A DNA stretch of 64,000 nt from Owenia fusiformis (taxonomy: Eukaryota > Annelida > Polychaeta > Sabellida > Oweniidae), in contig CAIIXF020000012.1 in the NCBI GenBank assembly GCA_903813345.2, positions 4,693,318-4,757,317 on the forward strand. The letters are read 5' to 3'. How positions within the stretch are numbered: the stretch's first letter is position 1; each line of letters starts with the position of its first letter. Under the pieces are notes generated by a model. That model searched no databases and was not told where the DNA came from. It saw only the letters and a list, made by a program, of their open reading frames with translations. The position numbers and the translations under genes were made by a program. Below are positions 35,201-41,200 of this stretch, one piece after another.

Positions 35201-38200
35201 TGTAGATTATGTAATTACACATACAATGCTAAAATATTATAGCTATATCTTAAATTATCAATGAGATAAGGCTGCCATGGTAACCTGTATTAAGGGTAGG
35301 CAGGTCAATTTAATTATAACATATAAATATCAAAATAACTTGTTATTTTAATTATTTTAAAGCATGCGGAAATCATGCATTTTTTCTAAAAAAGTTTGGT
35401 ATTGTTACTTGTTGTTTGTAGCTAAACAAATGTTTATATGTGCTCACTATAACATCACAACAAATCACAATAGCATTATAGGACAGAATGGGCCAATTGA
35501 CATTACATGTTACGAGACACACCAAAAATCAAATTGTCTGATTAGGTTAATGTGGCTGATGCAGAGTGTCACATTAACGGATACATTAGGGAATACCATT
35601 AGATTTGATTTTCTTTCAAGAATAAGTGAGGGACACTGTCAGAGACATACATGGAGTCATAAAGTGCATGGGCAAGGTGTTATATCTGCATAAAGAATAT
35701 ATAGGTAGTATTGTAAAGAGGAAAGCATGGTCACTGTTGAAGATCATCTGCAATCTGGTTGCAAGAAGAGCTTGCGGACAGAGAATAACACTACAATAAA
35801 TTGAGATGTTACTTATGAAAAGATAGCTTTCCCACTGTATAAATTATCAAACAAGGGCAACAGGGGTATGGAACAGATCAATGAATAGTTGACAATGACT
35901 GGAAGATGCGTTTGATCTGCTTAAAATAGGTACCGAGGAATGATTAAATTAACATATTTATCTATTTTAGACGTTATAATTTAACTGACCTGCCTACCCT
36001 AAATACAGGTTACCATGGCAACCTTATTTCAAAATTAATTTAAGATACAGCTAAAATATTTTAGCATCGTATGTGTAATTACATAATCTACATGTTCTGA
36101 AAAAATGAAAAGGATATGTGAAAAAATCACAAAATGAGAGCATTTTTATCAGAATATATGGATCGCCCCTTGTATAATACATGATATTTTCTTTAGTTTG
36201 AATGCATAAGATTGACTGAAAGTCAGATAGTTCATCGGTGGTTTATATAAAAATCTTTTTTCACCAATTTTTCAGGCTCAGTGAACATGAAAATATAGAG
36301 GACAACCGTCGCCATCTACAATTACTTACCCAGAAAGTCTTCAATGCAATCACAGCATCTGCTGAGAGGTAAGTTGTGGTTGGTCATGGATCATATATGG
36401 TGGTTCATGAAGTTGTATAAAAAATACACCAGAAACATGTTTGGAATCAAAATGTGAATTTAAAAAGTATTTCTGTCATCAATTGAAATTAGATTTTATA
36501 AAATAATGAATTCTGCTTATTCAATGTTTTATTTAAAATTAATACATGGAATGGATTAGTAAACATAACATAAATATAAATATTTGTTGATTTCATGGAT
36601 ATGATGATTTGCATGTGAATGTAAGGTGACTGCCCTTATTGAGTTAACAAAATGAAGATTAAAAAAATTTAATTTAGATAAATTGTGTTTGTGTTGTTGC
36701 AATTTCTTTTAATTTTTGCCATTATGTTGTGACTCATTGTTGACACGTTTCTGTTGCATGCTTCAGCATTCTCTTAGTATGTACCTGTTAGTTTAAAATG
36801 GTTTCAATGAGATCACATCACACTTTTCTTCTGATTTGACTATTCTCATAGTTTGCATTCATTGATTTTCATTCATTCATCACTTTTATGATTTTACAAA
36901 AAAGCAGAAAAAAATTAATCATGGATTATGTTAAACTTGTTCGAAAAAATTGGAATATTTCAGTAATCTTTGATTTGCACATGTTGTTAATGTTTATTCT
37001 ATTACTTCTATACATGCCTATATAATCTCTTATGTATGCATATTACATAGTGGCCACATGTCATTTTTTCTTTGATCATAGCAACATTTGATATTTTAAA
37101 ACTGTAATATTACATTTGTTTTGTTTGTTATAGCAGATGGGTTGAGTTCTGTTACACAATTGAGTTCACTGAACATGGGGGAAGGGGTCGGAATCTCCTA
37201 GAAATTGATTATGCAATAAATGTTGATAATTTGATTGGCCATTAACTTGGCCACTATGTGATACAAATGTATTTCTTTTATATGTGGTTTACGAATCATG
37301 AATAAAATGTCATCAATGGTCTTTGCCAAAACTTAACAAAAATTCATTTACAACAAAAAATAGGTGTGTGGTTCACACTCTTGTTGGCAATGAAATGGAG
37401 GAAAATCAGAGAGTTTGTAGAAGGGCTTTGAAAAATATCTAAATATCTAAATTATTTTTTATTATGTACTTGAAAATAAGCAAAATTAGTCAGCTTAAAT
37501 TCACTGAACATAATTTTTCGATGCTAAATAACATAGCCTTCTTTGGAAGGAAGGAATATGCAGATTATGTGAGACTAAGAGGACGTTTTATACACCACTC
37601 CTGGAATTTTAGAATCCCCTCCCAAGTGCGGACAATGTGCCACTGCATATTTCAAGTCGTCTGTCAGAGGTTCCCTGGTAACAGTATGGGAGCCCTGGGA
37701 ACTATGATCTTTCTACGATTCATCAATCCAGCCATAGGTAATGCATGTAGAATTCACTGCGAGTCTGCACTCTGGGTGATTTTATTCGCTCTTTGCATGT
37801 GCTTTTTGTAATGTGTTTGTTTGTGTGTTTGGGCTTGGTATGTTCTTTTAACATAATTTTTAGGTACAGGTTAGAGACCTGACGTTAATATTGTCCAATA
37901 TGTTTTATATTTTGTTTACATATTGCTAAGGCAACACATCGTATCTCTAACCGGTAACCACTTGTATTTTCGATTATTTGCTTTCAATGTTTATTGACAA
38001 TTTTAATTACGTAAAGATAATAGACAAGACTCTCTTACAGCTATTTTTAAGTTTCCCTCGCAGGGTGCCTCAGGTATGACCCCTCCAAAGGGGTCAATGA
38101 TTCTGCTGTGACCATACCATGGGGGGCCCACAGGAAGACTATGGCGCTATGCATAACAAAAATGCTTAGGAGTGGGGTTTATGAACAATAATCAATCATT

Positions 38201-41200
38201 TTGTGACAATTTGATCAATATAAATCATTTACCTAATACGCTAAGTTCCTGGCAATACTGGTACCTGACAAGCAATGTACATTCATGAACCAATTTCTTG
38301 TTTGGTTGGGCATAGATTACAAACAATGTCCAATATTCCTGAGAACCCAGAGTCGCATTTTCATACTCAGTTTTACAAATGCCATTGGGTTTCTTCAGGT
38401 TCCCCATTTTTTCCAGGAAAAACTGTCATCAGTCACTGCCATGTAACTTATTCTCAAGCGTCATATTCATTTTACAAACTAACTCTGCTTAGGCATCCCA
38501 AACTAACTCTTTTTTTCCATCCCAAACTTACTCAACTTTGCTGTACCAAACTAACTCTTTTTTGCCATCTCATAGTAACTATATTTTGCCATCCCAAACT
38601 AACTCAACTTTGCCATCCCAAACTAACTCTATTTTGCCATAACAAACTAACTCTGTTTTGCCATCCTAAACTAAATCCATTTTGCCATCCCAAACTAACT
38701 CTATTTTGCCATCCCAAACTAACTCAATTTTGCCATCCCAAACTAACTCTACTTTGCCATCCAAAACTAACTCTACTTTGCCATCTCAAACTAACTCAGT
38801 TTTGCCATCCCTAACTAACTCTACTTTGTCATTTCAAACTATGAAACTAAACTCTATTTTGCCATCCCAAACTAAATCTACTTTTCCATTTCAAACTAAC
38901 TATACTTCGCCATCCCAAACTAATCCGGCCTTGTTTTCCATCCCAAACTAACTCTATTTTGCCATCCCAAACTAACTCTACTTAATGCCATCCCAAACTA
39001 ACTCTATTTTGCCATCCCAAACTAACTCTATTTTGCCATCCCAAACTAACTCTATTTTGCCATCCCAAACTATCTCTATTTTGCCATCCCAAACTAACTC
39101 TATTTTGCCATCCCAAACTTATCCTTGTTTTCCATCCCAAACTAACTCTATTTTGCCATCCCAAACTAACTCTACCGTTCATCATACACTAACAGGTTTC
39201 CATCGAAACTGCGCAGCATGTGCCACTGTCTCTATCAGGTTGTGATGCAGCGATTCCAGCAGAGCACACAGGATGCAGTCTGGACTGTAATCGGGACGGT
39301 CATTTTCTTGCGGTTTATTAATCCTGCTATAGGTATCTAATTATGACCGTTGTGTTGTAAGCATAGAGGAGTCTGTCAATCCCATGATACCCTAGGTGTT
39401 GTGTGACTTGTTTTGGTTAAGAGGGGACTGATCAATCACATGTGAATCTCACAGTTTCAAATGGATGTTTTTATTTGACACTATAATGAATGTACTTTGT
39501 TTGTCAACTTATAATTGGAATGAATTCTGGGATTGGTCAGTCTCCTTTTATTAATGTTGTCTCATATATTACATCTTATCTTGTCAAAATATTGAAGACT
39601 TATTGAATATTATTTCTATGACACTTCTTTTCATCTCGAAAAATTACGTCTCGCCAAATTACAGAATTTATTTTATAATATTGTCAGAATGTTTTGAGAT
39701 TCTCTTTTGAGCTGTTGTGGCATGTTTGAGCTGTGTAAGGTTTCTGAATGTGGATATAGAGGGATGACATTTACACAAGCTTTTCTGAATTTTGTGAAAA
39801 TGTGAAGTGTTGTTGCTCACACACAATATGTTGTCAATTTTGACCAATCAGAACACAATATAACCACACATAATTCTCGAAATCTATGCATGAGTTGTCC
39901 ACTGTCCGCTTGCAAACAGTGAAATGCTAACTGATTTTAATGAAATCGTTTTAATTTGTTTTCCATGTATGAAAATTAGAGGTGTCAAGTATTAACCGGT
40001 TAACCGGTTAACCGCCGATAATGCCTTGACCGGTCTGAGTTTTTATGGGCGGTTAGTTGACCGTGTATAATTCTGTTATTTCCCGCGCTTATTTTGCATG
40101 CTAATCCGATTGGTTTTATGGTGTCAGTTTCACGTAAGCTACTCATACATGTCATAAGTCCCATAACTCCTTACAAACATCCAATCAGCAACTTTAATCC
40201 CTGCCACATTGCTTTCCCGCGCTTACTTTGCATTTTAATCTGTTTGTTTTTCAAGCGTCAGTTTCATGTGAGCTACTCATACATGTGATAGGTCCGATAA
40301 TTCCTTACAAACATCCAATCAGCAACTTTAATCCCTGCCACATTCCTTTCCCGCGCTTACTTACATAGAATAACGTAAAGCTTGACGAACGTAAAAAATA
40401 AACGCCGATATATCATTTTCCAATTTTTTTCAACTTTCAAGATCGGAGATGAAGATTTCATTTGAAATTATCAGTTCAAATTTCCCGCCGGTTAACCGAC
40501 TTTAACCGGTAAAAACCCCCGGTTAACCGGTTAATGCTCAAGCGGTTAATTGACACCACTAATGAAAATGATGAAAAGCCATCATTGATTATCTCACACA
40601 TTTGTTGGGTTTTATGCAACTACACACTTTACATGTTCAGGAGGGGGGGGGGGGCAATGTTGTAATGAATGCATGCAATACTTTATGATTTGTTTGTGCA
40701 TGATGTTAAAGTCCACATCTTGACTTACTGTACTCAACAGACCCATATAGGATTTTGATTCCTACAATCATCTTAATGTGTTAGCCTATGAGAAAATTCT
40801 GCTTGAGTTTTCCTTGTGTTGCCTACAGAAAAATCTATCATATTATTACTTTGATTGCATGTATATGAATTCATAGAATATCCAAAGGAAGATATAATTT
40901 AAATATTAAATAATTAGCTTGTATTCGCGAATGCAACTAACACCTGTCGGCTACCAGATTGATCTACTATTTTATGGGTAACTCATTTAAATAAGAATAG
41001 TACCTGCCACTATTCCATTTCATATTTAAATGCGTTGGTCATAAAATAGTAGGTTAATCCGGTAGCTGACAGGCGTTCGTTGCATTCGCGAATACAAGGT
41101 AAGTTTTGTGTCTCAACAGGGGGTTCAAGTCCCTGGAATTTTTCAAAAACCTGAACCTCCTTGGCTAAAGCTGGCTTTCGGAGGCCTGCTCCAAGTCTTT

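What the first reader, a model, noticed from the sequence alone, without database searches (positions are those of the whole stretch)
37613..39332. Mutually exclusive exon pair inside the RasGAP catalytic domain of neurofibromin
Exons 28a (37613-37737, 125 nt) and 28b (39196-39332, 137 nt) both have intact splice sites, the same phases (2 in, 1 out), and code for the same segment ending in FLRFINPAI. Each length is 2 modulo 3, so using both or neither shifts the frame; exactly one must be included. 28a has the human-like GNSMGALG core, while 28b has a four-residue longer [13 protein letters not shown]. Vertebrate NF1 alternative splicing (the 21-residue type II insert) hits the same place, after CHCLYQ. 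An independently evolved switch at the same spot would be striking.
Basis: partly seen in the sequence, partly recalled or inferred. Interest (0 to 1): 0.88.

Follow-up and report, generated by a model that had tools for sequence, protein, structure and literature searches.

The report
Ancient either/or exon pair in neurofibromin
A marine worm's NF1 tumour-suppressor gene carries two alternative versions of one exon inside the part that switches off Ras, and the second version also occurs in snails, mussels, octopuses and ribbon worms, so it is probably a very old splice switch in a region that vertebrates also alter, by a different route.

Summary
The window holds the NF1 gene of the annelid Owenia fusiformis. 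Exons 28a (125 nt) and 28b (137 nt) are intact and share phases; using both or neither gives a premature stop. 28b is not a recent or decaying copy: its signature ([19 protein letters not shown]) is in 24 of 179 fetched NF1 proteins (21 molluscan, 2 nemertean, 1 unnamed). 28a-type versions occur in other molluscan models. In the snail Pomacea, isoforms X4 (28a-type) and X8 (28b-type) differ only there and at a separate stretch of about 20 residues; a sea-slug model holds both copies in the worm's order. A tree of the short segment puts Owenia 28b inside one 28b group (97/89). So this is most simply a mutually exclusive exon pair older than the annelid-mollusc-nemertean split, covering the helix with the RasGAP FLR motif. 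All four splice sites are weak for this gene, as in many regulated exons. Missing: RNA evidence for 28b in Owenia, relatives' DNA, any activity assay. It is a new member of a known kind (tandem-duplicated exon substitution), distinct from vertebrate exon 23a; ten capped literature searches listed no earlier description.

The parts
8195..62032 (+). NF1 (neurofibromin) gene of Owenia fusiformis, 60-exon model, start to stop codon
   Evidence: Spliced alignment to a recalled human guide; 100% or near identity of most exons to Owenia protein P0001. Some small exons in variable stretches (23861-23922, 24012-24102, 56026-56051, 56056-56236) are uncertain.
34908..35086 (+). Constant exon with the arginine finger ([10 protein letters not shown])
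   Evidence: role of R1276 from PMC7437355 (passage)
36276..36368 (+). Exon before the pair ('27'), ends in phase 2
37613..37737 (+). Exon 28a, 125 nt, [41 protein letters not shown], ancestral-length type; the one used in the public Owenia protein
37738..39195 (+). Intron between the two exons, 1458 nt
38475..39174 (+). 24-nt minisatellite, 28.5 copies, ends about 20 nt before exon 28b; the intron holds 23 of the window's 58 CTAAC words on this strand; role unknown
39196..39332 (+). Exon 28b, 137 nt, [45 protein letters not shown], conserved in molluscs and nemerteans
42433..42607 (+). Exon after the pair ('29'), starts in phase 1, VSPCESG...

Best explanation
Exons 28a and 28b are a mutually exclusive pair that arose by tandem exon duplication before annelids, molluscs and nemerteans split. 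Exactly one is spliced in; the reading frame (shown) plus decay of mis-spliced mRNA (inferred) makes the choice strict. The choice swaps the helix before the FLR motif and the helix that bears it, while the arginine finger lies in a constant exon and FLRFINPAI is the same in both Owenia versions. Both isoforms should therefore be working RasGAPs that differ in potency, self-inhibition or placement at the membrane, and the choice probably varies with tissue or stage (inferred).
Against: No RNA from Owenia; the public Owenia protein uses 28a only. No relative's DNA, so intron positions elsewhere are not seen. The molluscan isoforms are database models, and Elysia P0016 is probably a gene-finder artefact that joins both exons. 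Ridgeia, Dimorphilus and Lingula show only ancestral-length segments. The tree rests on 45 columns, its bootstrap had not settled, and it is unrooted. 8% and 17% of all GT and 15% and 9% of all AG words in the window score as high as the sites of 28a and 28b. No assay shows that the isoforms differ in activity.
Confidence: 0.9

Rival explanations
1. 28b is an unused or decaying duplicate in Owenia that merely happens to be open.
For: The public Owenia protein uses 28a; the 28b splice sites are weak for this gene.
Against: No stop, intact sites and phases; 37-42 of 45 residues shared with 15 molluscan and nemertean 28b segments; short branch while 28a has the long one; better RasGAP score than 28a. 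Another copied exon in this gene, 46748-46833, shows what decay looks like: its acceptor reads AC.
Confidence: 0.05
2. The 28b-type exon arose separately in Owenia and in molluscs/nemerteans by parallel duplications of the ancestral exon.
For: Exon duplication happened repeatedly in this gene (also 46748-46833 and 60996-61258); only 45 tree columns.
Against: Same 4-residue extension and motif, one 28b group in 96% of 200 bootstrap trees, and the same a-then-b order in Owenia and Elysia.
Confidence: 0.03
3. The pair is regulated as on/off control: one choice or mis-choice is a poison product that lowers NF1 level, rather than two useful proteins.
For: Both or neither exon gives an early stop.
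Against: 28b is kept as protein in 24 database proteins and folds as a GAP domain, so it is not merely a poison exon.
Confidence: 0.07

Closest known systems
Vertebrate NF1 exon 23a (neurofibromin with and without a 21-residue insert)
   Same: Splicing alters the same stretch of the RasGAP domain of the same gene; exon 23a lowers GAP activity about tenfold (PMC8580823, passage) and KRAS affinity threefold (PMC7437355, passage).
   Different: A 63-nt cassette between Q1370 and V1371, included or skipped, against a swap of homologous 41/45-residue exons with other borders. Frame is kept on skipping of 23a (63 = 3 x 21) but not here.
Tandem-duplicated exon substitutions in general (review of 236 human events, PMC9741552, passages)
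   Same: Adjacent homologous exons, one used per mRNA; usually ancient, with mostly conservative changes; [quoted passage not shown]
   Different: I saw no NF1 case in the passages shown; that paper treats human genes and their fly and worm orthologues, not trochozoans.
Oyster alternative oxidase duplicated exon (PMC5589949, abstract start in listings)
   Same: A molluscan gene with isoforms from a spliced duplicated exon.
   Different: Other gene; phylum-level age not compared here.
OGDH exons 4a/4b (PMC7969005, abstract start in listings)
   Same: Mutually exclusive enzyme exons whose exclusivity has a known cause, distant branch points.
   Different: [quoted passage not shown] the CTAAC-rich array here ends next to the 3' splice site. 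Link not tested.

Membership tests
Mutually exclusive tandem-duplicated exons | Adjacent homologous exons with the same phases | tested here: met
   26 of 41 aligned residues identical; both phase 2 in, 1 out
Mutually exclusive tandem-duplicated exons | Only one exon gives an open mRNA | tested here: met
   Both or neither gives an early stop
Mutually exclusive tandem-duplicated exons | Transcripts with either exon in this species | not testable with these tools
   No Owenia RNA; the public Owenia protein shows 28a
Mutually exclusive tandem-duplicated exons | Either exon in annotated isoforms of one relative | tested here: met
   Pomacea X4 against X8 and X9; database models, not reads
Mutually exclusive tandem-duplicated exons | Both copies conserved between species | tested here: met
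   28b strongly. 28a-type is present in Owenia and five molluscs plus Elysia, but diverged; its orthology to Owenia 28a rests on length and order, not on the tree
Neurofibromin RasGAP-related domain | RasGAP profile match with either exon | tested here: met
   132 and 122 bits, cut-off 28.3
Neurofibromin RasGAP-related domain | Arginine finger and FLR motif present | tested here: met
   [10 protein letters not shown] in exon 34908-35086; FLRFINPAI in both alternative exons
Neurofibromin RasGAP-related domain | GAP activity of each isoform | not testable with these tools
   Needs an assay
Vertebrate exon 23a | 63-nt cassette inserted between the residues equal to Q1370 and V1371 | tested here: not met
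   Both exons run through CHC..QVV without a break

The most novel reading that the evidence does not exclude
A tissue- or stage-regulated RasGAP switch, fixed in the ancestor of annelids, molluscs and nemerteans, in which swapping one exon of neurofibromin tunes Ras shut-off: the trochozoan counterpart, by another route, of the vertebrate exon 23a switch.
Probability: 0.55. Interest if true: 0.8.

Novelty: new member of a known kind. Interest (0 to 1): 0.66.

Why it matters
NF1 is a major human tumour suppressor whose catalytic domain is altered by splicing in vertebrates. A second, separately evolved splice switch over the same stretch would mark this part of the RasGAP domain as a recurrent tuning point. 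It offers natural pairs of catalytic segments, kept since before three phyla split (over 500 million years, from general knowledge), for kinetic and structural comparison. It also means that published molluscan and annelid NF1 sequences mix two isoforms and should not be compared blindly.

Tried and rejected
Steric blocking between the exons: rejected, the intron is 1458 nt. U2/U12 incompatibility: all sites are GT-AG; by eye I saw no U12 branch site before exon 29 (motif recalled, not scored). RNA pairing between the flanking introns: the best pair of introns 2 and 3 (38266-38286 with 39486-39506, which would loop out 28b) was reached by 1 of 60 shuffles, the best pairs of the other two combinations by 57 and 42 of 60; one weak result of three without comparative DNA is no basis for a claim. 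A third exon copy in the window: none; the two exons score 94 and 83 bits, the next 8. A second NF1 gene: the RasGAP family has 10 matches in the genome, 3 of them in this window (28a, 28b, the arginine-finger exon); of the other 7, six were kept as loci and none exceeds 38% identity to Owenia NF1, two having no match at E 0.01; the seventh, on C4 and below the cut-off, was not examined. A direct NF1 search of the genome did not complete. dS between 28a and 28b is saturated (the method returned -1). Structure: the FLR helix starts 14 residues before the arginine both in the Octopus 28b model and in an arthropod control, so no longer helix than in arthropods; 28b has 20 residues between the arginines of QRF and FLR, the arthropod 19, human 16. 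Whether the extra residues are helix or loop is not settled; mean pLDDT there is 63-78 in the Octopus model.

Literature: ten searches listed no paper, by title and start of abstract, on a duplicated GAP-domain exon in molluscan or annelid NF1. Lists were capped (20 of 82, 20 of 22, 20 of 97); the library holds open-licence papers only; supplements and preprints were not searched. PMC12352984: found passages only, 'invertebrate' does not occur. PMC7692384: passages and section 8, which names mice, chickens, rats and cows. PMC3771449: passages on C. elegans gap-2, unrelated. PMC4594767: passages, the hit is 'Neurofibromin 2', unrelated. PMC4825643: only a reference title.

Rows dropped: the tree used 34 of the 179 proteins, less P0001, plus Owenia 28a and 28b and human; the partial Elysia 28a segment was left out. 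Splice statistics left out 28a and four uncertain exons.

Full report
What is there. The window encodes a neurofibromin gene on the + strand, 8195-62032, 60 exons in my spliced model. The best public match is P0001 of Owenia fusiformis: 92% over the searched region, which carried 28b, and 100% or close to it over most exons. Owenia fusiformis is an annelid. The window sits in an assembly of 498 Mb in 525 contigs.

The exon pair. 28a (37613-37737) reads [41 protein letters not shown]; 28b (39196-39332) reads [45 protein letters not shown]. Both enter in phase 2 and leave in phase 1, with AG and GT borders. Joining both gives a stop 16 residues after 28a; joining neither, 4 residues after exon 27. 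They share 26 of 41 aligned residues; third codon positions differ at 29 of 41, first and second together at 20 of 82, as expected of old copies held by protein-level selection.

28b is old and shared. Three searches were run: with the GAP region (750 hits, 120 listed), with the 28b exon alone (213 hits, 120 listed) and with the Pomacea 28a-type exon (4 hits). They gave 179 different proteins. 24 carry the 28b signature, 6 match a simple 28a-like pattern (Owenia P0001 among them), 149 fit neither; the 13 of the 149 that I extracted have segments of 41-44 residues without the WTVI block. The 24 are 21 proteins named as bivalves, gastropods or cephalopods, the nemerteans Lineus and Tubulanus, and the unnamed P0010, 90% identical to the Octopus protein. 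In one search they take the top 24 places, 83-94% identical, 76-94 bits; the 25th, a wasp, has 59. Unlisted hits were not seen, and the database is clustered at 90%, so isoforms of one species may be hidden.

Both types in one species. Pomacea X4 (P0042) and X8 (P0022) lie on contigs of equal length (34,737,321 bases, hence taken as one) and differ only in this segment and in 20 residues at 1455-1474 that X8 has as one. Mytilus edulis X6 (P0028) is 28a-type and P0005 28b-type, after the same upstream sequence; they come from different assemblies and differ elsewhere too. The Elysia crispata model P0016 runs a 28a-type segment straight into a 28b-type one. This looks like a gene-finder joining both exons, and it shows the order a then b, as in Owenia. 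Babylonia, Gigantopelta and Tegillarca models are 28a-type.

Descent. In a tree of 36 segments (45 columns), all 16 28b-type rows, Owenia's included, form one group (97/89; in 96% of 200 bootstrap trees). Five molluscan 28a-types form another (97/97). Owenia 28a sits on a long branch (0.46) outside both, 28b on a short one (0.078). So the 'human-like' exon is the faster-changing one. The bootstrap had not settled, the tree is unrooted, and it does not itself join Owenia 28a to the molluscan 28a-types. That 28b is the derived type rests on human, hemichordate, lancelet and arthropod segments lacking the WTVI block. The simplest reading is a duplication before the common ancestor of annelids, molluscs and nemerteans. 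Ridgeia, Dimorphilus (annelids) and Lingula (brachiopod) show only ancestral-length segments: loss, or isoforms hidden by clustering or gene models.

Regulation. Scored with this gene's own sites, only 4 and 4 of 54 donors and 2 and 7 of 54 acceptors are weaker than those of 28a and 28b. Weak sites are common in regulated exons (general knowledge). Frame plus mRNA decay would make the choice strict; what picks the exon is unknown. A 24-nt minisatellite of 28.5 copies ends about 20 nt before 28b, and the intron holds 23 of the window's 58 CTAAC words, a branch-point-like word (recalled). It may feed the 28b acceptor or be a bystander.

Verdict. Observation confirmed; interpretation supported and extended in age and range. 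The kind is known (PMC9741552, passages); the case appears undescribed in the library searched. Missing are Owenia RNA, relatives' DNA and any assay.

Noticed in passing
window 60996-61258 and 61715-62032: The last coding exon is duplicated: 163 nt at 89.6% identity. The upstream copy has an average acceptor (24 of 54 score lower) and its own stop; the public Owenia protein P0001 strings both copies together. It could be an alternative last exon.
   Followed up: partly
window 46748-46833: Partial copy (86 nt, 88%) of the exon at 46861-46962, directly upstream of it; its acceptor reads AC instead of AG, so it looks dead.
   Followed up: partly
window 24866-30728: A large intron holds an element with inverted repeats 25032-25190 / 30283-30441 (97.5%) and long open frames, one with a reverse transcriptase (Pfam RVT_1, 75 bits) and a weak RNase H match. 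A recombinase-like end of the 990-aa frame, seen by eye, had no Pfam match; it may be a DIRS-type retroelement.
   Followed up: partly
P0042 residues 1455-1474 (Pomacea canaliculata X4): A second alternative stretch, 20 residues in X4 and one residue in X8 and X9, lies downstream of the exon-28 segment.
   Followed up: no
window 38475-39174: 24-nt minisatellite next to the 28b acceptor, rich in CTAAC. Other tandem arrays lie in the gene's introns, e.g. 9828-11249 and 15288-16056, so it may be incidental.
   Followed up: partly
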